Below are positions 1,596 to 64,000 of a stretch of 64,000 nt of DNA, piece after piece. Positions within the stretch are counted from its first letter, which is position 1. Each line of letters begins with the position of its first letter. Made by a program: the position numbers and the translations under genes. The notes below the pieces were generated by a model. That model was not told the origin of the DNA and ran no database searches. It worked only from the letters and a program-made list of their open reading frames with translations. This DNA is from Hondaea fermentalgiana (taxonomy: Eukaryota; Sar; Bigyra; Thraustochytrida; Thraustochytriidae), in assembly GCA_014084085.1 (NCBI GenBank), contig NPFB01000052.1, forward strand, positions 62,552 to 126,551. The letters are read 5' to 3'.

Positions 1596-1847
1596 CCTTC
1601 GTGCGTGCGGACAGTGATCAGGCATCGACTCCAATCTAGGCAGCGAGTGTATCCAAGGTTGTTTGTTCTTTTGTTTCTTTGCTTGTGGATTTTATAAAAA
1701 AGCGAAGCAAATCAAGTATATTCCTTTTGTATAGATCGAATTCGCTTGCCGCGTCTAGCCGGCTTGCGCAATGTGGCTGCTCAGTACACTGTGAGTGCAA
1801 CCATGCGCCTAGGAACGAAGGCTCCCATCTCCAACTCATAAAGTCGC

Positions 1848-4800
1848 TCAAAGATCTGACCTGCCGCGTCGAAGCTGCCGGCCCGCACTGCTATCGTCCC
1901 GCGAGAAACTCGTCCGACTCTGAACAACACGACCAGACCGACGAGGAGAACCTGACCTCGGGCTCGTCTCGATCTTTCGAATAAATGATCGACTCAGTGA
2001 CTGATCCGCGTCGCCATCATCATAGGCAATGTCGTACGTTCCATTGCGGTTCACACAGGAAATCGATCCCGGATACCATTGGTCCTGGCCCCGAAAGCGC
2101 GCCTCCACGCGGTCTCCCACACGCAAGTTCGAGCTCTCCTCCATGTTGGCAGAGCTCGGCCGGACAGACTGTCGCGAACTTGACCCTGAATCGCCCAATT
2201 TGCGAACCTTGCTCGGCGCAACGCGACGCTCTTGGTCGCCGTCGTCGTAGTCAATGTTGCAGCTTCCGTCGGCGTTGACGCGAGTAATGATACCCTTGTA
2301 ATACTTGGCCCCGCCCTTGAATTGAGCCTCCACACGGTCGCCTTCCCGGAATTTCGCCCCAAAGTCATCATCCGTGTCCGAGCTCGGCCGTCCAGTGTGA
2401 CGCGGACTTCCTCCGAGCTTGCGGACTTTGCTCGATGCAACGCGTCGCTCTTGATCGCCGTCATCATAATCAATATTGTAGCTGCCGTCAGCGTTGACAC
2501 GGCTAATCTTCCCCTTGTAGTACTTGGATCCGCCCTTGTACCGAGCTTCAACACGATCGCCTTCGCGTAAAACGCCACCGGCATCATCTTCCGTATCTGA
2601 ACTCGGTCGTGCGCCTCGACGAGGGCTGCCCCGTCCAAAATCGCCACTTCCGCCATCACCACCAAGCTTACGAACCTTGCTGGGAATGACGCGTCGCTCT
2701 TGGTCGCCGTCATCGTAGTCAATGTTGTAGCTACCGTCGGCGTTGACACGAGAAATCTTGCCCTTGTAGTACTTGGAACCTCCCTTGTACCGAGCTTCCA
2801 CACGATCGCCTTGACGCAAGGCGCCGCCAGCATCGTCTTCCGTATCAACGTCATCTCGGCCTCCTCGGCGTGGGCCACCTCTCACGCCGCCGCCGCCAAG
2901 TTTGCGCACCTTGCTTGGTATGACGCGCCGTTCTTTATCGCCGTCATCGTAGTCAATATTGTAGCTGCCGTCAGCGTTGACCCGTGAAATTTGGCCCTTG
3001 TAATACTTGGATCCGCCCTTGTACCGAGCTTCGACACGATCGCCTTCGCGCAAAACGTCGCCGGCATCATCTCCCTCTGTATCCGAACTCGGCCTTCCGC
3101 CTCCACCTCTTCGAGGGCTACCTCTTCCACCACCGCCACCGCCACCGCCACCAAGCTTACGAACCTTGCTGGGAATGACACGTCGCTCTTGGTCACCGTC
3201 ATCGTAGTCAATATTGTAGCTGCCGTCAGCGTTGACCCTGGAAATCTTGCCCTTGTAGTACTTAGATCCGCCCTTGTACCGAGCTTCAACTCGATCGCCT
3301 TCGCGCAAAGCGCCACTGGCATCGTCTTCGGTATCAAACTCGTCACGACCACCTCGTCGAGGACTTCCTCCAAGCTTACGAACCTTGCTCGGTGCAATGC
3401 GGCGCTCTTGGTCGCCGTCATCGTAGTCAATATTATAGCTTCCGTCAGCGTTGACCCTTGTAATCTTGCCCTTATAGTACTTGGATCCGCCCTTATATCG
3501 AGCTTCCACGCGATCGCCTTCACGTAAGACTCCACCGGCATCGTCTTCGGTATCAATTTCGTCACGACCACCTCGCCGAGGACTTCCTCTTCCACCACCA
3601 CCAAGCTTACGAACCTTGCTGGGAATGACACGTCGCTCTTGGTCGCCGTCATCGTAGTCAATATTGTAGCTACCGTCCGCGTTAACGCGGCTGATCTTAC
3701 CCTTGTAGTACTTGGATCCGCCCTTGTATCGAGCTTCGACGCGATCGCCTTCACGTAAGACGCCACCGGCGTCATCTTCCGTATCCGAGCTCGGGCGCCC
3801 GCCTCGCCCAGGTTTGTTACCTTCAAGCTTGCGAACTTTGCTTGGTGCAATACGCCGCTCTTGGTCACCGTCGTCATAATCGATGTTGTAGCTCCCGTCA
3901 GCGTTGACACGAGATATTCTGCCCTTGTACCACTTAAAGCCGCCCTTGTATCGAGCTTCGACGCGATCGCCTTCGCGTAAAGCGCCACCAGCGTCGTCTT
4001 CAGTATCAAGTTCATCACGCCCGCCTCGACGAGGACTTCCTGCTCTCGCTCCACCCCCTCCAAGCTTGCGCACCTTGCTCGCCGCAACACGTCGCTCCTG
4101 GTCGCCATCGTCATAGTCGATATTGTAGCTTCCGTCAGCATTGACGCGGCTAATTTTTCCCTTATAGTACTTGGAGCCGCCCTTGTACCGAGCTTCCACA
4201 CGATCACCTTCGCGCAAGACTCCGCCGGCGTCGTCTTCGGTATCCGAACTCGGCCGCCCGCCTCGACGAGGGCTTCCTCCGAGCTTACGCACCTTGCTCG
4301 GTGCAATGCGGCGCTCTTGGTCGCCATCGTCATAGTCAATATTATAGCTCCCGTCAGCGTTGATACGGCTAATCTTGCCCTTGTAGTACTTGGATCCGCC
4401 CTTGTATCGAGCTTCCACACGATCGCCTTCCCGCAAGACTCCACCTGCATCGTCTTCGGTATCAAATTCGTCACGACCACCTCGCCGAGGACTTCCTCCT
4501 CTTCCAGCACCGCCACCAAGCTTGCGCACCTTGCTTGATGCAACGCGGCGCTCTTGGTCGCCGTCGTCGTAGTCGATGTTGTAGCTGCCATCTGCATTGA
4601 CGCGAGTGATCTTGCCCTTGTACCACTTGGCTCCACCCTTGTACCGAGCTTCCACGCGATCTCCCTCGCGCAGAATGCCGCCAGCATCGTCTTCTGTATC
4701 GATGTCCCCACGACCACCTCGGCGAGGGCTGCTTCGTCCACCTCCACCAAGCTTGCGAACTTTGCTCGAAGCAACACGCCGTTCCTTGTCGCCATCATCA

Positions 4801-7800
4801 TAGTCGATGTTGTAGCTTCCATCGGCATTAACGCGGCTAATTTTGCCCTTGTAGTACTTGGATCCGCCCTTGTACCGGGCTTCCACACGATCACCTTCAC
4901 GCAAAGCGCCACCTGCGTCGTCTTCGGTGTCGAATTCGTCGCGGCCACCTCGCCGAGGGCTACCTCGACCGCCGCCGAGCTTGCGCACCTTGCTTGGAAT
5001 GACACGACGTTCTTGGTCGCCGTCGTCATAGTCGATGTTGTAGCTGCCATCTGCATTGACGCGAGTAATTTTGCCCTTGTACCATTTCGACCCGCCCTTG
5101 TACCGAGCTTCCACACGATCACCCTCGCGAAAACTACCACCTGCATCATCTTCAGTATCAAATTCATCACGTGTGCCGCGACGAGGGCTTCCTCGACTTC
5201 CGCCTCCAACTTTACGGACTTTGCTTGCTGCAACACGGCGCTCCTTGTCACCATCGTCGTAGTCGATATTATAGCTACCATCGGCGTTGACGCGTGAAAT
5301 CTTGCCCTTATACCATTTTGACCCGCCCTTGTATCGAGCTTCCACACGATCGCCCTCGCGTAAAGCGCCACCGGCATCGTCTTCGGTATCAAATTCATCA
5401 CGACCACCTCGCCGAGGGCTTCCTCTTCCAGCACCGCCGCCAAGCTTGCGCACCTTGCTTGACGCAACGCGACGCTCTTGGTCACCATCGTCGTAGTCGA
5501 TGTTATAGCTACCGTCGGCGTTGACGCGCGTGATCTTGCCCTTGTACCATTTCGACCCACCCTTGAAGCGAGCTTCCACGCGATCACCCTCGCGAAGACC
5601 GCTACCGGCATCATCCTCCGTATCAAATTCGTCACGTCCGCCACGACGGGGGCTCCCTCGACCTCCTCCGCCACCTCCAAGCTTGCGCACCTTGCTCGAA
5701 GCAACGCGACGTTCCTTATCACCATCATCGTAGTCAATATTGAAGGTGCCATCGGCATTGACGCGTGTGATTTTGCCCTTGTACCACTTCGACCCACCTT
5801 TGAAGCGAGCTTCAACGCGGTCGCCTTCGCGGTGTGTGCCACCACCATCATCTTCAGTATCAATATCGTCTCGGCCACCACGTCGAGAACTACTTCTTCG
5901 ACCACCCCCATTGCTACCGCCGAGCTTGCGGACCTTGCTTGCAGCAACTCGGCGCTCTTGGTCACCATCGTCGTAATCAATATTGTAGCTTCCGTCCGCG
6001 TTAACACGAACAATTTTTCCCTTGTACCATTTGGAGCCACCCTTGAATCGTGCTTCGACGCGGTCGCCTTCAGCAAGAGCATCGTCATCTTGATCTCTCG
6101 AGGATCCACTGTCGAGTCGTCGAACCCTCGACGCAGGAACACTGCGCTCTTTGTCGCCGTCGTCGTAATCAATATCAAAGGCTCTGCCGCCAGCACCCAC
6201 ACGAGTTACCCGGCCCTTGTACCACTTCGAGCCGCCTTTAAAGCGCGCCTCTACGCGATCGCCGCGTCGCACATTACCATCTTCATCGCGAGACCGCTTG
6301 CGACCTCGATCCTCACCGTCAGAGTCGGAACCAGAGGAAAGCTCTGGGACGTCAGGTCGCCTCCCACGCCGCTTGTAGCGCCGAAGAAGTGACGGACGAA
6401 CAGAGCGTTCGGTGTCGCCGTCATCGTAGAGAATATTCACTGTGCGGTCGGCATTGACGCGAGTCAGCTCGCCACGCCGCCAGCTTGAGCTTCCTCGGGC
6501 CCGTGCTTCGACAATGTCGCCCTTTCGCCATGTCTCCGCGTCGCTTCCTGACGCATTGTCGCTGCCAGACCCATCTCGGCGTCGTCGAGCGGACGAGGAT
6601 CGAGACGTTGATTTGACCTCGTAATCTTCGTCGACAACATCGTAGCACAATCTTGCATATGCGCGCACAAACTGCTTGCGAGTCACATAGTAGTAAATGT
6701 CCTCTTTGCGAAAGTAGGTACGCAGTTCATCCGCGGAAGGGAGTGGCTTGCTCCTTCCACTACGAGGAATGGACTTGAAAGCCATCAGGACATTATTCAT
6801 GGCAAGCTGGCCGCGGCTGCCACTCTTTTGGTGCTTTTCAAACGCGCGTTCCACCTTGCGAACGACGTGGCGACCCATGACAACGGGTTTGCGTTTTTCG
6901 GTCTTTGACTTCTTGCCATGGCGTGATCGAGATTCTTTGCGGCGGCGACGATGAGACCGCGAGCTCGAAGCCGAACTAGATGTCGACGCAGAGTCAGAAT
7001 CAGATTCTGAAGCGGACGTGGACGTTCGCGAGCTATCCGAGCCGCTGCTCTGGCCACTGGACCCAGAGTCGCTTTCTGAGCTGCCAGTCTCGCTCTCCGA
7101 GCTATCGCTGGCAGAGTCACTGCTGCTATCCTCAGAGCTCTCGCTGCTAGAGCTCCCGCTACTGCTGGACCACGAACGTGACCTACGTGCACGGCGTTTG
7201 GAGCGAGGAGATCGCCCACGCCGCTTGGACGTCTTGCGGTGTTTATGGTGTTTACGATGTTTGCGTGCTTTAAGCAAGAAACCTGTAGGGTCATAGGCGA
7301 CAGGCCAGCGTTTATTGCTGGAGGAAATTTCGACGGTGTTTCGACTGCCCACAGTCTCCAACGTCGGGTTTTCGAGCGTTTCGCTTGCGAGCGCAATGTC
7401 CCGCTGCTTGACAAAGTATGCAAAGGCGCGCGCGAACTCAAAGAGATCAAGAGGCGTCGCGCTATCCAGCCCTTGCAGCCGCAAGTACTGGCCTACCTCT
7501 ACTGCAGACACACGCATGCCGGTGTGCGAGAGTGCGCGAGCTGCCTCATGGCGCGTGATTTCACCCACGTGGTCACGGTCAGCGCGGTCGAAGATCCGCT
7601 TAAGTCGGGCAAAATCCTCGGTGCCAACTTCTTGCGAGATGTTGAGCGCCAAGGCTGGTCGTTTGCGCAAGCGCATGAAAGACTTGACGCGGTTGCTTGT
7701 TTCTGCGCCATCTTCGCCCTTGAGCCACAGAGCAAGTTCATGATTCCGCCCGCGCTGCAATTTGGTGTCTGCTGCATCACTGCCCACGGTGCCGCCCCCC

Positions 7801-9383
7801 AGCACTCGTTGCGCAGACTGCGCACGCTGCTCTTCAACCCAAGAGCTGTACGCGCGGTTCTCTCTGCAGCGAACATGGCCGTCCTCGCGCAAAAGAAGCC
7901 GGTCGTTCTTATCCTCTCCGGGCGTGCTGCGTCGAGGGCTCGTCACGCACAATCCAAGCTCTGACGAGGACGCCCGCGTCGAAGCAAAGAACGCTTGCAC
8001 AAACTGGGCAAAAGAGAGTCCCGGCGCTCCCTGACCAAAACTGTTCACCCAAGCTTGCAGCTCTACCTTGGGGATCTCGAAGCCTAGGGCCGCCAGAGCA
8101 CCATGAAGCTGCTCAACACCGCAAAGGCGATGACCCTGGGTGTCGGCCTGGTCAAAAGCCTCCTTTAGACGCGCCACAAGCACAATTTCATTCTCGCGCA
8201 GAGCATCGACGACTCCAGCCATGTCATTTTCTTCGACGCCAGATTCCATGACTTCGCGTCTCCGCAATTCTTGCAATCCCTTTTGCAATTTACTCAAATG
8301 AAGAGGATGATGTACGCCCAAAAGTTCTTGCATATCTTGCGGTGCGAGTTGCAAGAGCATCGACCCATTCACACTCGCCTCCTGAAAGTTGTACTTGTAC
8401 GAGGGCAGGTCGCATTCCTGGTCGAGCCATGTGAGCACATGGCGCACAGCCCAGTCCCGCACAGGAGTTGCGTGGATGTCGGGCACCGAGACTTTGCGTA
8501 CGTGCGCGGGCCCTGGAGAGCGGAGTTTCTCCGTGATCCGCAGGGCGCTTCGTCGTGGTGATGAGTGCGGGCTGCGCCCACGAGGTCCTCGAATCATCCC
8601 TGGAGACCCAAGCGAGTGTCCGTCGCCTTGCGTTGCCCGCGCCGAAGGCATCTGTGGCAAAAGCTCTGCAGTGGTGAGCTCTTTCCGCGTGCGCGCTGGG
8701 TCTGCACGTACAAGGACAACCTCAAAGTCGCCAAACTCGGCCAGGTATTGTCGCGAAGCGCCGCTGGGCATAGGGAAGCGAGGGTTCTCGGTCTGGTCCC
8801 ACGTGAGCACCATGCACTCGAACTCGTTCTCACCTGCGCTGATGGCCTTGAGGATGGCCATCTTTTCCGCGCTCGTGCTCAGCGTAGTCTCGTTGCTCTC
8901 AATATTGCACCCACTGTAAACGAAGCCTCCGCGTGTGAGCAAAGCGGCGCCGTAGCGGACACCTGTTAGCGGGGCGACTCCATTTTTACATGCGTTGACA
9001 GCAATATCGATGAGGTCGTCAAGCTGCTCGTTGCGACCCTGCGCCCAGTTTTTTAGCTCGCGTAAGCGGGCGACGTGTTCCTCGCGCAAAGCGGGTGGCG
9101 AAGACGCGCCTGGGATGACCGTGTCAGAGGTGCGATCCACGTATGCCCTCACGGCGATGGCCTGCTCAGCATCGAGGCCCATCTTGACGCGGGCAAGGGC
9201 AGAGCTCCCTTCTTCGCGAGCCTCCTCGACGTAGCTGCCATTCTCGAGGCTGTTGCGCCGGAAGTCGTTCGTCATGGTCCTGTTCTTGGACTTTTTGCCT
9301 GCTGGTATTGGCGTCTTGGGTATGGCCCGAATGCGCTGAAGCACGCGCATGGCTTCGGCCTCGAGCATCTCGACGTCCTTCAT
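1848..9383 (-). CDS. 2511-aa pseudo-cytidine-deaminase / SAM / EF-hand / SR / 20x Tudor-like protein
   Basis: One uninterrupted frame. Approximate order: residues 100-225, a cytidine-deaminase fold (SGCNIESNE, TSAEKMAILKAI, PSGASRQYLAEFG); 308-372, a SAM domain; 395-460, 595-680 and 835-900, degenerate EF-hand-like helical pairs lacking full calcium loops; 715-830, a basic then Ser/Arg/Glu-rich SR-type tract; 950-2465, twenty Tudor-like domains of consensus EGDRVEARYKGG, YYKGKISRVNADGSYNI, DYDDGDQERRV. Linkers carry glycine runs, an RGSPRRGGR motif and an acidic DTEDD motif. In active deaminases the zinc is held by cysteines in CAE and PCxxC; here all three are serine (S171, S207, S210) while the proton-shuttle Glu (E173) remains, so deamination is unlikely. 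Tudor folds usually read methylated lysine or arginine, so a nuclear or RNP scaffold role is inferred. The first ATG is used. Localisation and partners are unknown. Confidence 0.9.
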   Translation of the reverse strand: MKDVEMLEAEAMRVLQRIRAIPKTPIPAGKKSKNRTMTNDFRRNSLENGSYVEEAREEGSSALARVKMGLDAEQAIAVRAYVDRTSDTVIPGASSPPALREEHVARLRELKNWAQGRNEQLDDLIDIAVNACKNGVAPLTGVRYGAALLTRGGFVYSGCNIESNETTLSTSAEKMAILKAISAGENEFECMVLTWDQTENPRFPMPSGASRQYLAEFGDFEVVLVRADPARTRKELTTAELLPQMPSARATQGDGHSLGSPGMIRGPRGRSPHSSPRRSALRITEKLRSPGPAHVRKVSVPDIHATPVRDWAVRHVLTWLDQECDLPSYKYNFQEASVNGSMLLQLAPQDMQELLGVHHPLHLSKLQKGLQELRRREVMESGVEENDMAGVVDALRENEIVLVARLKEAFDQADTQGHRLCGVEQLHGALAALGFEIPKVELQAWVNSFGQGAPGLSFAQFVQAFFASTRASSSELGLCVTSPRRSTPGEDKNDRLLLREDGHVRCRENRAYSSWVEEQRAQSAQRVLGGGTVGSDAADTKLQRGRNHELALWLKGEDGAETSNRVKSFMRLRKRPALALNISQEVGTEDFARLKRIFDRADRDHVGEITRHEAARALSHTGMRVSAVEVGQYLRLQGLDSATPLDLFEFARAFAYFVKQRDIALASETLENPTLETVGSRNTVEISSSNKRWPVAYDPTGFLLKARKHRKHHKHRKTSKRRGRSPRSKRRARRSRSWSSSSGSSSSESSEDSSSDSASDSSESETGSSESDSGSSGQSSGSDSSRTSTSASESDSDSASTSSSASSSRSHRRRRKESRSRHGKKSKTEKRKPVVMGRHVVRKVERAFEKHQKSGSRGQLAMNNVLMAFKSIPRSGRSKPLPSADELRTYFRKEDIYYYVTRKQFVRAYARLCYDVVDEDYEVKSTSRSSSARRRRDGSGSDNASGSDAETWRKGDIVEARARGSSSWRRGELTRVNADRTVNILYDDGDTERSVRPSLLRRYKRRGRRPDVPELSSGSDSDGEDRGRKRSRDEDGNVRRGDRVEARFKGGSKWYKGRVTRVGAGGRAFDIDYDDGDKERSVPASRVRRLDSGSSRDQDDDALAEGDRVEARFKGGSKWYKGKIVRVNADGSYNIDYDDGDQERRVAASKVRKLGGSNGGGRRSSSRRGGRDDIDTEDDGGGTHREGDRVEARFKGGSKWYKGKITRVNADGTFNIDYDDGDKERRVASSKVRKLGGGGGGRGSPRRGGRDEFDTEDDAGSGLREGDRVEARFKGGSKWYKGKITRVNADGSYNIDYDDGDQERRVASSKVRKLGGGAGRGSPRRGGRDEFDTEDDAGGALREGDRVEARYKGGSKWYKGKISRVNADGSYNIDYDDGDKERRVAASKVRKVGGGSRGSPRRGTRDEFDTEDDAGGSFREGDRVEARYKGGSKWYKGKITRVNADGSYNIDYDDGDQERRVIPSKVRKLGGGRGSPRRGGRDEFDTEDDAGGALREGDRVEARYKGGSKYYKGKISRVNADGSYNIDYDDGDKERRVASSKVRKLGGGGRSSPRRGGRGDIDTEDDAGGILREGDRVEARYKGGAKWYKGKITRVNADGSYNIDYDDGDQERRVASSKVRKLGGGAGRGGSPRRGGRDEFDTEDDAGGVLREGDRVEARYKGGSKYYKGKISRINADGSYNIDYDDGDQERRIAPSKVRKLGGSPRRGGRPSSDTEDDAGGVLREGDRVEARYKGGSKYYKGKISRVNADGSYNIDYDDGDQERRVAASKVRKLGGGGARAGSPRRGGRDELDTEDDAGGALREGDRVEARYKGGFKWYKGRISRVNADGSYNIDYDDGDQERRIAPSKVRKLEGNKPGRGGRPSSDTEDDAGGVLREGDRVEARYKGGSKYYKGKISRVNADGSYNIDYDDGDQERRVIPSKVRKLGGGGRGSPRRGGRDEIDTEDDAGGVLREGDRVEARYKGGSKYYKGKITRVNADGSYNIDYDDGDQERRIAPSKVRKLGGSPRRGGRDEFDTEDDASGALREGDRVEARYKGGSKYYKGKISRVNADGSYNIDYDDGDQERRVIPSKVRKLGGGGGGGGGRGSPRRGGGGRPSSDTEGDDAGDVLREGDRVEARYKGGSKYYKGQISRVNADGSYNIDYDDGDKERRVIPSKVRKLGGGGVRGGPRRGGRDDVDTEDDAGGALRQGDRVEARYKGGSKYYKGKISRVNADGSYNIDYDDGDQERRVIPSKVRKLGGDGGSGDFGRGSPRRGARPSSDTEDDAGGVLREGDRVEARYKGGSKYYKGKISRVNADGSYNIDYDDGDQERRVASSKVRKLGGSPRHTGRPSSDTDDDFGAKFREGDRVEAQFKGGAKYYKGIITRVNADGSCNIDYDDGDQERRVAPSKVRKLGDSGSSSRQSVRPSSANMEESSNLRVGDRVEARFRGQDQWYPGSISCVNRNGTYDIAYDDGDADQSLSRSFIRKIETSPRSGSPRRSGRVVQSRTSFSRDDSSAGRQLRRGRSDL
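1985..6530 (-). repeat. Tandem coding repeat: 20 Tudor-like units of about 230 bp
   Basis: The unit is about 73-85 codons: a domain of about 50 residues plus a variable Gly/Arg/Asp linker. Outer units (the first two and the last two) are the most diverged and central units are nearly identical in protein. The units differ at many third codon positions, for example in the codons for DDYDINY read on the minus strand near 2461 and near 4561. The periodicity keeps other frames open for long stretches, including a non-genic frame of about 3.3 kb on the same strand. Confidence 0.95.
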
Positions 9384-10098: not shown

Positions 10099-10752
10099 CT
10101 AATGAGTAGCAGCACCACCACGGAGCTGGAGCACCATATGAATGACGGCGCCGGCACTGACGTTGTAGTCACCGAGCTGCTTGTCGTCAGCAAGCTGCTT
10201 GCCTGAGAAAATGAGGCGGATCTGGTCGACTTGAATACCTTCCTTTTCTTGAAGCGCGTGCTTGACGTCAATCACCTTGACATCGGTCTCAAAGTTGTAT
10301 GGTGTCTTGCGACCGGTCAGCGTCTTGATCCAGATCTGCATGCCACCAAGCGCGCGCGGGGCCAGAACGAGCGTTGACCCGTCTTCGACGCCCTGCGCGC
10401 TCAGAGACGAACCTGCCTCGAGCACTCCGCGTCCACACGACAGCCGGAGGCTTGACACGGCATCGGCAGGGAGACCAGCCTGGTTCGAGAGCGCCTCAAA
10501 AATCGTCTCCTGCGTGGCCTCTGGGCTGGTCTTCACCTCCAGACCCTGCGTCCCAGCAAAAGAGAGCAGAAAAAAGATGACGACACGTTTTCGTAAGTGA
10601 TCGTTTTCGATTTTCGCAGCGTGGCAAGTCGTTAGTTATCCTGTCATCTCGGTTTGGAGCCCTCGACTGCGCGCGTTCTCCAAGGATTCCTTTCCCGAGC
10701 AAGTCTTGCGTCCACGTACCTTTGCGTCTCCGAATCGAACAAAGACGCGCAT
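10099..10752 (-). CDS. Two-unit ubiquitin-like polyprotein (Ubl plus NEDD8/ubiquitin-like), 2 exons
   Basis: Coding join 10752-10720 and 10545-10099 (159 aa). A 174-nt intron (GTACGT to CAG) separates the first 11 codons; splicing supplies the missing first beta strand (MRVFVRFGDAK) of unit 1. Unit 1 (1-79) is a divergent ubiquitin fold ending ALGG. Unit 2 (80-155) is 76 residues and clearly ubiquitin/NEDD8-like: MQIWIKTLTG, DQIRLIFSGKQLADDKQL, ending LRGG, followed by a four-residue tail AATH. In unit 2 the hydrophobic patch positions L8, I44, H68 and V70 are kept and K48 is present, but K63 is Ala and position 72 is Gln rather than the Arg of ubiquitin. Residue 72 is where E1 enzymes tell ubiquitin from NEDD8. 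Both units end in GG at a cleavable junction, so a protease could release two conjugatable modifiers. Confidence 0.85.
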
Positions 10753-11083: not shown

Positions 11084-11335
11084 AAAGGAAAGGAAAGAAG
11101 AATAGAAAGGAAAGGAAAGGAAAGGAAAGGAAAGGAAAGGAAAGGAAAGGAAAGGAANNNNNNNNNNNNNNNNNNNNNNNNNNNNNNNNNNNNNNNNNNN
11201 NNNNNNNNNNNNNNNNNNNNNNNNNNNNNNNNNNNNNNNNNNNNNNNNNNNNNNNNNAAAGGAAAGGAAAGGAAAGGAAAGGAAAGGAAAGGAAAGGAAA
11301 GGAAAGGAAAAGAAAAGAAAAGAAAAGAAAAGAAA
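11084..11335. repeat. GGAAA pentamer microsatellite spanning a 100-N assembly gap
   Basis: Uninterrupted GGAAA units run into the gap (N from 11158 to 11257) and resume in the same register, then drift to AAAAG units. The gap is clearly an unresolved part of this satellite. True length is unknown, because 100 N is a placeholder. From 11336 to 11954 the spacer is pyrimidine-rich with TTGCT/GCTTG runs and is the likely promoter and leader of the next gene. Confidence 0.9.
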
Positions 11336-11954
11336 GTAGGAGGCTCACTCGCCCTCCGGCCCCACTGGGCGCTTCCCCCAGGGGACGGCCCGCGCAAGAA
11401 CGGGTTTCGCAGTCTGGGTCGACGGAGAACCTGACCAACGGATCTCTTTTTTGGTCTGTCTTTTTTGGGGGAGGGGGCGGGGGGCGTCCTTTGCTTGTCT
11501 CGAGCAAGGAAGGTATCGAGCGATACTTGGCGAGCCATGGACTGAGCGACCGGCTGCATTGGCTGCGTTTATGTTGGCTCGCACGTGCTTTTTTTGCTTG
11601 CTTTGTCCTTTTGTTTGACGGGAGCTTTGCTTTGCTTGGCAAGTTGGCCTGGCCTGCCTGCCTCTTGGCCTCCTTCTTGCTCGATAGGCGACACACCGGG
11701 TCTGAGTGCGAGGCCCTCGATCCGATTGATCAGACACGCTGACGCATCCTGCATCGATCGGAAGCCTCGGTGCCTCTCGATCGGTGCAGCGTCCGCTTCA
11801 TTGATCGCTTGCTTGCTTGATTTCATTTCATTTCATCTGATTTGTTTGATTGCTTCATCGTGCGGTCGTTTGCGATCGAAGCGAACCAACAAAGAGCTTT
11901 CTCGGCATTGTTGTCGTGCTTGGTTGGAGACACAGGCCAAGTTCACCACTCACC

Positions 11955-13073
11955 ATGGGCGAGATGAAGGAGGGCAAGCAGCCCGAGCTGTACCCGACGT
12001 GGGAGCAGCAAAGCAAGGTGCAGGGGTACCGCATCGAGACCCTGAATGCGCTTTCCGCGCCCAAGGGCGTCAGGTATGTATGCGAGCTCACTGGGGTGGC
12101 AGCAGGCGTGAAAATGATTACTCCTTTCACTTCGCTCTACTATGGCAGCAAGGAAGACGCCATTCTCTCTTGGGAAGGCATCATGCACAAGCTCTTGCCA
12201 CTGGTGAGCCAATTGCGTGCCAAACCTGTCATCATCGGTTCTGAGGAGGAGCGACAGAAGCGCGAGTACTCGATTCTCATGAGCAAGCGTGCTCTTGTGG
12301 ATCTCACTCAGCGTATCGCGCAACGCTTTCTCATCAAGGGCGAGTACGAGCTGAGCATTCCGGGTGCCATGCAGTGTCTCTCCTTTTCCAAAGAGGTCTA
12401 TGGTGACGATACCATTGATCTCGTCCCAGCGTATCTGCTTCTTGCACAGTGCCATCTCGGCATGCGAAACTTTCGCCCGGTGCAGGAATTTCTTGGACTT
12501 GCCAATTGGAGTGTTCTCAAGACGCCCGACTGTCCGAACGAAATCAAAGCACAGCTCGAACGAACATTCGGTAAATTATGTGCTGCTGAGGGCAAGCATG
12601 CCGAAGCTGCCGAGCACCTAGCCAAGGACATTTACTGGACGAGCCTCGCGTCTGGACCGGAGCACGTCAAAGTCTCGGTTGGGTATTTCAACCTTGCGTG
12701 CGTCTTTGACGCACAGCATCGTGTGGAAGCCGCGCTGGCGCTCTATGACAAGGTTGTTGATATTTGGTACAAGTATCTCTCGGCGGTACGCATGTCCGGC
12801 GACGATACGGATCCGCTTTCCGAAGCGCAATGCGAGGAAGCAATGCAGATGCTTTTAAAGATTCTCGACGTACGAAGACAATTTCTCGGCGACAATCACA
12901 TTGCAACAGGCGAGGCTCACTTCACTCTTGGGCTTCTCAGGCTCCTCATGGAGCGCGAGCTTGATGTGGCAAAGCAAAGTATCGCAACTGCACATAGTCT
13001 CTACGTCTCGCATCTTGGGCCCGATCATCCATCGACAGTTGATGTCAAAGATTTGCTCGGGGCACTCGCGTGA
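11955..13073 (+). CDS. ZMYND12-like TPR protein (axonemal family)
   Basis: The 372-residue product matches the layout of ZMYND12, a TPR protein that partners TTC29 in sperm and protist flagella. Recognisable blocks are the SEEERQKRE stretch, PGAMQCLSFSKEVYG, DLVPAYLLLAQCHLG, NWSVLKTPDCPNEIKAQL, and the repeat helices up to LGPDHPSTVDVKDLLG. About five TPR-like helical pairs fill residues 105-370. The N-terminal MYND region (about 40-75) is degenerate: only the first cysteine of the usual zinc set is left and the YYC motif reads YYG. The stretch 12074-12148 has GT...AG ends and is 75 nt long and in frame, so it might instead be an intron. The start is an ATG in a CACCATGG context. An axonemal role is inferred from family. 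Confidence 0.85.
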   Translation: MGEMKEGKQPELYPTWEQQSKVQGYRIETLNALSAPKGVRYVCELTGVAAGVKMITPFTSLYYGSKEDAILSWEGIMHKLLPLVSQLRAKPVIIGSEEERQKREYSILMSKRALVDLTQRIAQRFLIKGEYELSIPGAMQCLSFSKEVYGDDTIDLVPAYLLLAQCHLGMRNFRPVQEFLGLANWSVLKTPDCPNEIKAQLERTFGKLCAAEGKHAEAAEHLAKDIYWTSLASGPEHVKVSVGYFNLACVFDAQHRVEAALALYDKVVDIWYKYLSAVRMSGDDTDPLSEAQCEEAMQMLLKILDVRRQFLGDNHIATGEAHFTLGLLRLLMERELDVAKQSIATAHSLYVSHLGPDHPSTVDVKDLLGALA

Positions 13074-49335: not shown

Positions 49336-50003
49336 CGCTCTTCCCTCCATTTTCCTTTTTCTTTCCTTACACGCTGGTGCTTCTTGCAAAAGGAGCAACA
49401 GCAATGCGCGATAAAACTGCTCTTTTCTTAGCCATGCAATACACAAGTTCTGCTTTCTTCATTGGGCGCCAGAATCAATAAACTACGTGACTAACGTCTC
49501 TTCGCTCTTCCTTCCATATTCCCCTTTCTTTCCTCACACGCTGGTGCTTCTTGCAAGAGGATCAACAGCAATGCACGATGAAACTGCTCTTTTCTCAGCC
49601 ATGCAATTCACAAGTTCTGCTTTCTTCATTGGGCGCCAGAATCAATAAACTCCGTGACTGACGTCGGTTCGCTCTTCCCTCCATTTTCCTCTTTCTTTCC
49701 TTACACGCTGGTGCTTCTTGCAAAAGGAGCAACAGCAATGCACGATGAAACTGCCCTTTTCTCAGCCATGCAATACACAAAATCTGCTTTCTTCATTGGG
49801 CGCCAGAATCAATAAACTACGTGACTGACGTCGGTTCGCTCTTCCCTCCATTTTCCCCTTTCTTTCCTCACACGCTGGTGCTTCTTGCAAGAGGAGCAAC
49901 AACAATGCGCGATGAAATTGCTCTTTTCTCAGCCATGCAATACACAAATTCTGCTTTCTTCATTGGGCGCCAGAATCAATAAACTCCGTGACTGACGTCG
50001 CTT
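49336..50003. repeat. Four tandem copies of a 167-bp unit from the 3' end of the WD40 gene
   Basis: Copies start at 49336, 49503, 49670 and 49837, an exact 167-bp period with scattered substitutions. The copy at 49837-50003 is the original: on the minus strand it contains the last codons (SVTEFIDSGAQ), the stop at 49960 and the start of the 3' UTR. The other three are downstream duplicates of that stop-codon region. The period is not a multiple of three, so similar small frames of about 61 codons seen in several copies are by-products of duplication. Confidence 0.9.
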
Positions 50004-51341
50004 CAAGTCTCATGGAAAGCCACGGCACGGAATGATCCAGAGGGTCGGCGCGCACAGGAAGAGCACCCTCAGCAAGCGTCGGAGCGCGTCGCAAGCCAGA
50101 GTTAGACACAGATCGAGACCGCTTCCTCCCTGCATTCCGAGGGGCGCCCACCGGCGGTTCCGAAGGGGTTGTTCCTCCGCACAACACGAGTCGACTCCAT
50201 TGCGCAGACATGGACAGAGAAAAGATCGGGTACTTTTGGCCCCTCTGTGTCCGTGTCTTGAAGTGAGGTGAAAAGAGTCGCGAACGGCCCTTCGCGTCCA
50301 TGAAACACAAATCCCCGCTACTCGACCAAGTCATCATGAGGTCATCACGCTGCGGCCAAAAGGTACCACCGTAGATGGGTCGCGGTGTCTCGCCGTCACT
50401 CGGCAACTTGCGCCACAAAGGTCCATTCTCTGTGGCGCGCCGGTCATAGAGAGCAGTGCCACCTCTCCCACTGCCACTGAGAATGTAGGTCCCAGATCCT
50501 GACACCGCACAACACGTGACATGCGAGTCGTGAGCATCATCAATACATAGTGTGTCATACAAGGGAGAACGCAAATCGCGGCCGCGAACCGAGCCGTCAG
50601 AAAGCCCTGCAAAGACAGATGTTTCGTGAACGGTTGAGTCAAAGACGTAGGCCATGTTGTGTGGATTTCGGCTGCCCCCCGCCGTCACAGATCCGCGACT
50701 CCCATAGCGCCATGAAAGCAGTTCTTGAAGGCCATTCTTGTGCAGCACGGTGATTCGGTCATCGTGCGCCACAGCGAGCTCCTCGCGCTGTTCGAATTGC
50801 AATAAACCATAGACTTGCCCATCATTCTGCTCACTACGCGACGAGTCCACGCAATGTGTCTCGTGTAGTAAACCGACCTTTTCTTGCTGCGCATCCATGT
50901 CAACGACCCAAGTCTTGACATCGCCTCTGGCCCCACCAGAGTACATGATGCGCTTGCCCGCTGCTGCGGGTTGTCCATTGTCCCAGAGCACGCGGAGACT
51001 TTCATCGTCGTGTGCTTTGAAGAATATGTGTGTTCGCCGCGCACGCTCTTCGCCATCTCTCCACACTCCAATCGTGCCGTCCTCACAGGCCGTCGCCACG
51101 AGCGACTCGTTCTCGACGTTGTCACTCTCAACTATCCGATCGTGAAACAAGCAAGACAAGAACAGCAAAAGTTAGAAAGTTAGCGCCACGCATCCAGCGT
51201 CAGTCGCCCGCCGCAGACACCCCAAACCCATCGCGCGGCAGTTCCCCACGCCAGGCCACGCCGGGCTCCGCGTCCAGGTCGTCGTCGGCGCCGCCGTCAA
51301 CAAACAACCTTAACTAACTCACGGAGATCGCACCAAAACAT
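49960..51341 (-). CDS. WD40-repeat protein, 2 exons
   Basis: Coding join 51341-51323 and 51131-49960 (396 aa). The main frame lacks a 5' ATG; a 191-nt intron with donor C|GTGAGT and acceptor GGATAG gives a 19-nt first exon and start MFWCDLLESDNVENES. This exon is my inference. WD-type blades are visible: VATACEDGTIGVWRDG, MYSGGARGDVKTWVVD, VFAGLSDGSVRGRDLR, HVTCCAVSGSGTYILSGSG with LYDRRA, and a later SSSGDLCFMD. It probably forms a seven-bladed propeller with a basic Arg/Ser tail (GRKRSRSVSNS). I cannot assign a specific family. Its ATG overlaps the first ATG of the divergent DHHC gene. Confidence 0.75.
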
Positions 51342-63064: not shown

Positions 63065-64000
63065 TGTGCCTTGCCTGTCTGAATTCTTGGTCTTCCTCCT
63101 GTTTTCACAGCGTGCGAACCGCGTCAACGTCATCGTCGTCATCGTCGTGCACAACATTTCGTCAGCATCTTCCGTCTTCCTTCTTCTCAATCTCCATCTC
63201 TCCCTTTTCGCTTCGCCTCTCGACCAAGGACACCTCCACTCCTGCTCCGCCTTCTCCTCCTCCCCCCCCGCTGCCCCTTCCCTCGGCCCCTCCCCCGCGC
63301 CGCGCACCTCCTCCGCGCCCTTGCGCACGTCGCCGTCGTCGGGGCTCGTCGCGTCTTTTCTGTTCGTCGTCTCGCGTCATCGCGCTGCGTCCATTTCCCT
63401 TTCCGCCAAAACCATTCTCCGCTCCGCGCGAGCCTCCCGCCTCTCCNNNNNNNNNNNNNNNNNNNNNNNNNNNNNNNNNNNNNNNNNNNNNNNNNNNNNN
63501 NNNNNNNNNNNNNNNNNNNNNNNNNNNNNNNNNNNNNNNNNNNNNNCCCCGCGCGCTAAGGCGGGACCGCCGCCGCCCGTCCCGCGCCGTTTCGGGCGCG
63601 GCGCCGAGCACGCGGGGGACGCAGGCCGGGCGTCCCGTGTGGCCGTTTTGCCGAGAGCGCTCTCAGGTAGAGCGGGACTAGCGGCGGCGCGGGCGGGGCT
63701 GGGAGCGGGGAGAAGACGCGCGCGGGCGGCGAGCGAGCGAGGGAGGGGCGAGGAAACCGAAGAAGGAAAGGGGACGGAGGGAGAGGAGAACGTGCGGAGG
63801 CGTAGCTGATTGACTGACCTGCCTGCGTCTGCGGCAGCGGCGGCAGACACCGATCGATCTTCAGCCCGCGGCGCTGCCCAAGGGAGCGCGGGCGGGCGGG
63901 CGCGCGAGGGGCGTGCTCGCTTGCTTGCTTGCTTGCTTGCTTGCTAAACTTCTTGCGTGCGCGCGAGCGAGCGGAGCGAGCTGGCGAACCTACGCTCGCT
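63065..64000. other. GC-rich promoter side of the dehydrogenase gene, with 100-N gap
   Basis: Leader and promoter of the aspartate-semialdehyde dehydrogenase gene. It contains a pyrimidine-rich stretch (63180-63446), the gap at 63447-63546, GC-rich sequence and GCTT tetramers at 63919-63945. The gap prevents any gene call here. Confidence 0.6.

What the first reader, a model, noticed from the sequence alone, without database searches (positions are those of the whole stretch)
1985..6530. Twenty-domain Tudor-like array with arginine-rich and acidic linkers: a possible self-reading scaffold
Seen: 20 tandem domains of consensus EGDRVEARYKGG...YYKGKISRVNADGSYNIDYDDGD, most separated by a glycine run, RGSPRRGGR and DTEDD. 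Known: Tudor domains can bind methylated arginine or lysine, and RG/RGG motifs are typical arginine-methylation substrates. Inference: the protein may carry both the reader and, in its own linkers, the ligand, making a multivalent, methylation-switched condensate or RNP scaffold. I know of no described system with this composition.
Basis: partly seen in the sequence, partly recalled or inferred. Interest (0 to 1): 0.82.

Follow-up and report, generated by a model that had tools for sequence, protein, structure and literature searches.

The report
Giant Tudor-repeat scaffold, dead deaminase head
A marine protist makes a very long protein with twenty near-identical marker-reading domains joined to the remains of an enzyme; relatives in brown algae, oomycetes and other stramenopiles suggest that the enzyme was lost where the reading array grew, but what the array reads is unknown.

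Summary
One minus-strand ORF (9383..1848, 2511 aa) of Hondaea fermentalgiana, a thraustochytrid, encodes 20 Tudor-like units, most separated by Gly-run/RGG/acidic linkers. The two units modelled are SH3-like Tudor barrels; 19 of 20 units carry a 53BP1-type cage pattern. Units differ mostly silently (pooled pN/pS 0.085), so they are under selection.

The 'self-reading' inference is not supported by comparison. RGG per linker is 0.79 here, 0.03-0.04 in the two relatives nearest to it in the head tree, and zero in 54 of 101 array rows. It is not excluded.

In this family, 28 of 28 proteins with an intact zinc site carry 0-3 Tudor units; 9 of 9 distinct proteins with none of the cysteines carry 10-31 (2 further rows undecided). 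The two groups also differ in lineage.

Best reading: a pseudo-deaminase/SAM head holding a highly multivalent methyl-peptide reader that binds in trans. Ligand, location and oligomeric state are inferred, not shown.

The parts
1848..9383 (-). Whole open frame, 2511 aa from ATG (MKDVEM) plus stop
   Evidence: database protein P0003 named cytidine deaminase (Hondaea fermentalgiana)
8652..9041 (-). Cytidine-deaminase-like domain (aa 115-244), pseudoenzyme
8754..8873 (-). Lost zinc site: Ser171, Ser207, Ser210 where 28 relatives have Cys; Glu173 kept
8262..8456 (-). SAM domain (aa 310-374)
   Evidence: PF00536 39.9 bits, cut-off 23; structure matches
7989..8171 (-). EF-hand-like region 1 (aa 405-465)
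   Evidence: iterated HMM among relatives; no Pfam match here
7422..7607 (-). EF-hand-like region 2 (aa 593-654)
   Evidence: PF13405 27.8 bits, cut-off 25; PF13499 and PF00036 under their cut-offs
6879..7268 (-). Basic / Ser-Asp-Glu / Arg-Ser region (about aa 706-835), NLS-like by composition
   Evidence: composition, similar in P0004 and P0015; localisation is inference
6273..6530 (-). Unit 1, degenerate Tudor (cage positions A, R, Y, D)
   Evidence: no Pfam match
2127..6272 (-). Units 2-19, Tudor-like, with linkers; most linkers carry a Gly run, RGG and DTEDD
   Evidence: Pfam on units 7 and 12; fold of units 7+8
1848..2126 (-). Unit 20 and C-terminal tail; closest P0004 unit is number 29 of the 30 counted
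   Evidence: Tudor_5 31.9 bits, cut-off 31

Best explanation
The gene encodes a multivalent methyl-peptide reader scaffold. The head, a cytidine-deaminase fold without its zinc site plus a SAM domain, is kept for self-association (such deaminases are known tetramers and SAM domains known oligomerisers; both recalled). The tail holds 20 Tudor-like units, 19 with the cage pattern, on flexible, charged, modifiable linkers. Together they would bind many copies of a methylated lysine or arginine peptide on other molecules, most likely in the nucleus, and gather them. Shown by sequence and model: fold of two units and of the head, cage pattern by alignment, selection, lost zinc cysteines, family. 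Inferred: oligomerisation, methyl ligand, nuclear site, scaffold role. The linkers tune spacing, charge and probably phosphorylation or methylation; the family does not require them to be RGG.
Against: No binding, localisation, expression or oligomer data. Cage geometry was not measured on the model; it rests on alignment and on 53BP1 residues named from memory. Model confidence is moderate (mean pLDDT 71.5, pTM 0.36; 60.7 and 0.29). One other Hondaea array (L035) keeps the full cage in 0 of 8 units, and P0091 and P0083 in 29% and 43%, so arrays can exist without it. Other Tudor arrays of this genome sit with EF-hands, PUB, SAM or a tubulin-cofactor-C domain, which suits a cytoplasmic role as well. 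The zinc-site contrast coincides with lineage, so its link to array size may be one shared event.
Confidence: 0.5

Rival explanations
1. Self-reading scaffold: methylated RGG linkers are the ligand of the Tudor units of the same or neighbouring molecules, giving a methylation-switched condensate.
For: RGG 15 times in 19 linkers, shuffle mean 6.3; linkers constrained, pN/pS 0.241; PRMT families present; two other arrays, P0048 (Laminaria digitata) and the unnamed P0025, also have 0.47 and 0.65 RGG per linker. As a summed score PF00567 passes its cut-off in two other Hondaea arrays, L031 46.1 and L032 35.6 bits against 23, with no single stretch passing.
Against: RGG almost absent from linkers of P0004 and P0015, which keep head and array, and 0 in 54 of 101 rows; linkers less constrained than cores; best single-unit model is Tudor_5, and PF00567 reaches only 11.1 bits on this whole array. 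Fold does not discriminate.
Confidence: 0.12
2. Calcium-linked cytoskeletal or flagellar scaffold: the array binds modified tubulin or another cytoplasmic partner, not chromatin or RNP.
For: EF-hands in this head and in three other Hondaea arrays, a TBCC domain inside a fourth (L036), PUB domains in L032; no diatom among the names shown (names only, some cut off; no test of absence).
Against: NLS-like and Arg-Ser rich segments; only one EF-hand model passes its cut-off here. One library search for Tudor domain, EF-hand and flagellar proteome found no paper, which says little.
Confidence: 0.2
3. Repeat drift: the array grew by slippage and unit number has no function beyond one or two working units.
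For: Unit numbers differ widely (10-31 in zinc-less head-bearing proteins); units 1-19 of P0002 all match best one and the same unit of P0004, as after separate expansion or homogenisation.
Against: Silent-site saturation with conserved protein and the cage pattern kept in 19 of 20 units suggest that most single units are under selection.
Confidence: 0.1
4. The head is still an active deaminase that the array targets to marked substrates.
For: Database name cytidine deaminase; fold kept; Glu173 kept; PF00383 over its cut-off in one of two runs (yes, no).
Against: None of the 9 distinct long-array proteins has a Cys at any of the three zinc places; P0004 and P0015 lost the Glu too.
Confidence: 0.03

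Closest known systems
ADCP1 (AGDP1), plant triple tandem Agenet H3K9me reader
   Same: Several Royal-family barrels in one chain, aromatic cages, multivalent reading, published phase separation of H3K9me3 nucleosome arrays (PMC6318295, passages seen); among the first Foldseek matches
   Different: Six Agenets in face-to-face pairs; no deaminase, SAM or EF-hand part is mentioned in the passages seen; 20 units here
KDM4A, 53BP1, PHF20, SETDB1, SGF29 Tudor domains
   Same: Best PDB sequence matches of one unit are KDM4A (E 0.0029) and 53BP1 (0.021), of the unit profile PHF20 (0.008-0.011) and 53BP1 (0.019); best Pfam model Tudor_5; SETDB1 and SGF29 by fold
   Different: Few barrels and other architecture (recalled); ligand here untested
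SMN / SMNDC1 / TDRD3 methyl-arginine Tudors
   Different: PF00567 under its cut-off for this array (11.1 against 23 bits), not listed for 4 single units
FMRP (two Agenets and an RGG box in one protein)
   Same: Reader domains and RGG in one phase-separating chain (recalled; only the listing was seen)
   Different: KH domains, one RGG box, no array, no deaminase head (recalled)
CDA-SAM-EF-Tudor proteins with intact zinc site (P0103, P0109, P0113-P0138)
   Same: Same head order; in each of six printed, one Tudor unit with the cage pattern. 18 of the 28 have names, all oomycetes; 10 are unnamed
   Different: All three zinc Cys kept; 0-3 Tudor units instead of 20

Membership tests
Tudor / Royal family | SH3-like five-strand barrel | tested here: met
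   Strands E6-10, E17-25, E31-35, E40-44, E49-51 in unit 7 and the same order in unit 8; PDB matches. 2 of 20 units modelled
Tudor / Royal family | Pfam score above cut-off for a single unit | tested here: met
   4 of 20 units given: units 7 and 20 pass Tudor_5 (35.8, 31.9; cut-off 31), unit 12 just under (29.5), unit 1 no match
Tudor / Royal family | Aromatic cage residues | tested here: met
   19 of 20 units by alignment; geometry not measured
Tudor / Royal family | Binds methylated peptide | not testable with these tools
   needs a binding assay
Methyl-arginine Tudor (SMN/TDRD type) | Matches TUDOR PF00567 or SMN_Tudor above cut-off | tested here: not met
   PF00567 11.1 bits against 23 for the whole array; neither listed for the 4 single units given. 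In other arrays summed scores do pass without any single stretch: PF00567 in L031 and L032, SMN_Tudor 118.2 bits in P0005
Methyl-arginine Tudor (SMN/TDRD type) | Cage Asn (recalled from SMN) | tested here: inconclusive
   five residues after the third cage aromatic relatives mostly have Lys, Glu, Arg or Ser; no alignment to SMN was run
Cytidine deaminase | Deaminase fold | tested here: met
Cytidine deaminase | Three zinc cysteines (CxE ... PCxxC) | tested here: not met
   Ser171, Ser207, Ser210
Cytidine deaminase | Curated model cut-offs | tested here: inconclusive
   NCBIfam cytidine deaminase models all under cut-off, best 63.1 against 74; PF00383 24.5 against 25 but 29.4, over the cut-off,
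ADCP1-like tandem Agenet reader | Paired barrels packed face to face | tested here: inconclusive
   pTM 0.36 and linker pLDDT under 50 in the two-unit model
Self-reading scaffold | Linker ligand motif kept with the array in relatives | tested here: not met
   RGG per linker 0.03 and 0.04 in P0004 and P0015; 0 in 54 of 101 rows; above 0.4 in 3 rows, this one included

The most novel reading that the evidence does not exclude
Stramenopiles hold a protein family that turned an enzyme into a scaffold: a deaminase tied to a few Tudor readers in oomycetes became, in thraustochytrids, brown algae and pelagophytes, a zinc-less, perhaps tetrameric hub, while the Tudor tail grew to 10-31 units. With a tetrameric head the Hondaea protein would present 76-80 reader sites per particle, a valency I recall from no studied Tudor system (not searched exhaustively).
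Probability: 0.35. Interest if true: 0.72.

Novelty: new variant of a known kind. Interest (0 to 1): 0.52.

Why it matters
Tudor domains are well known, and a multivalent Agenet reader that condenses chromatin is published. I found no description of this family in the listings of the ten library searches, which cover open-licence papers only. The family, in which absence of the deaminase zinc site goes together with a large Tudor array, offers a natural series, from few readers with an apparently working enzyme to tens of readers without one, to test how multivalency arises and what a dead enzyme fold is kept for. Databases call the protein simply 'cytidine deaminase', which is misleading for this member.

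Tried and rejected
Tested and set aside: (1) Linker constraint from motif-picked copies (SPRRG.R, DTEDDAGG) is biased, since the pattern forces identity; replaced by the unselected linkers 3-17. (2) A conserved alternation of basic barrels and acidic linkers: true for P0002 (+4.2 and -1.7) but not general; mean domain charge is above 0 in 75 of 100 array proteins and mean linker charge below 0 in 38 of 100. (3) Telling methyl-lysine from methyl-arginine readers by fold: both rank alike. (4) An intact paralogue of the head in Hondaea: 9 matches, this one and 8 partial. (5) A tree to decide whether the zinc site was lost once: intact and zinc-less groups are split by one branch, 100/100, among 37 rows, but the root is unknown and the program warns that long branches meet there. 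The recalled species tree would ask for two losses or an old duplication. P0140, P0018 and the duplicate P0003 were left out of the tree. (6) Rfam (gathering threshold) and tRNA scans of the window: nothing. (7) Papers: no hit for thraustochytrid with Tudor domain, pseudoenzyme with cytidine deaminase and Tudor, or flagellar proteome with Tudor domain and EF-hand; the A. limacinum proteome paper has no Tudor, Agenet, cytidine deaminase or EF-hand in its main text (PMC12221091, term search). The listings show no description of this family; the passage seen of PMC12477816 tells of a Tudor domain in an Ectocarpus Gypsy element, not of arrays. SMN, FMRP and 53BP1 residue or domain details are recalled.

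Full report
What is there. The window lies in G000:C186:62552-126551. A database protein identical through aa 2464 is listed as 'Cytidine deaminase [Hondaea fermentalgiana]' (P0003), from which I name the organism. On the minus strand one frame runs from ATG at 9383 to a stop at 1848. The database model is 2489 aa and leaves this frame after 1992 for an exon at 1784-1855; the open frame instead completes unit 20. Neither end has transcript support here.

More than chance, and selected. Synonymous sites between units 3-18 are near saturation (mean pS 0.679 over 120 pairs) while the protein stays alike (mean pN 0.058); the ratio of mean dN (120 pairs) to mean dS (80 pairs; 40 could not be corrected) is 0.039. 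Pooled pN/pS is 0.085 for cores and 0.241 for the 15 linkers 3-17.

Self-reading. Among 101 array rows with at least four measurable linkers this protein has the most RGG per linker, 0.79; only P0025 (0.65) and P0048 (0.47) also exceed 0.4, and 54 have none. The four other arrays measured in the same genome have 0, 0, 0 and 0.12 RGG per linker. One PRMT5-type and three PRMT_C matches exist in the genome, so methylation is possible. I judge the linkers to be lineage-specific, charged and modifiable spacers; RGG self-reading remains possible in Hondaea.

Array history. Units 1-19 of this protein all match unit 3 of P0004 best, but unit 20 matches its unit 29 of the 30 counted. So the last unit looks orthologous while the rest expanded or were homogenised separately. 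In six intact-zinc proteins printed one unit each keeps the cage pattern; a second unit of P0103 does not.

Distribution. The two-unit search gave 110 proteins including this one; names shown include Phytophthora, Pythium, Aureococcus, Ectocarpus, Sphacelaria, Laminaria, Tribonema, Heterococcus and a chrysophyte, and many are unnamed. One Phytophthora infestans protein has 56 units by the profile used and only Tudor-type or overlapping models in Pfam. Long Tudor arrays are therefore a stramenopile kind, not a Hondaea oddity. The search only sees proteins of 0.55 to 1.75 times the query length.

How it most likely works. A self-associating head without catalysis, EF-hands of uncertain calcium binding, a Ser/Arg region and a tail of about 19 readers: a scaffold that binds many methylated tails in trans. 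Fold, cage pattern, selection and the lost zinc site are shown by computation; ligand, compartment and oligomeric state are inferred. The nearest studied analogue I know is ADCP1 (PMC6318295, passages seen). The rival cytoplasmic role gains from the TBCC, PUB and EF-hand partners of other Hondaea arrays.

Noticed in passing
L036 (G000:C27), L031 (C173), L032 (C147), L035 (C66): Four other long Tudor arrays in the genome, with TBCC (L036), EF-hands (L031), PUB and EF-hands (L032), EF-hand and SAM (L035) in the same open frames.
   Followed up: partly
window 1784-1992: The database gene model leaves the frame after 1992 and uses another last exon (1784-1855) in place of the end of unit 20; the uninterrupted frame looks more natural for the domain.
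   Followed up: partly
listing: No diatom among the names shown for long Tudor arrays, though diatoms are well sequenced; some names are cut off and absence was not tested.
   Followed up: no
P0109 and P0137: Two Nothophytophthora database proteins join the CDA-SAM head to an M13 peptidase (P0109 also to a kinase), probably fused gene models.
   Followed up: no
window 10102-10635: Ubiquitin-family gene on the minus strand next to the array gene.
   Followed up: no
window 11850-13070: TPR-repeat protein on the plus strand.
   Followed up: no
window 49336-50004: Four copies of a 167-base tandem repeat, 92% matches.
   Followed up: no
window 11158-11257 and 63447-63546: Two runs of 100 N, assembly gaps or masked stretches.
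   Followed up: no
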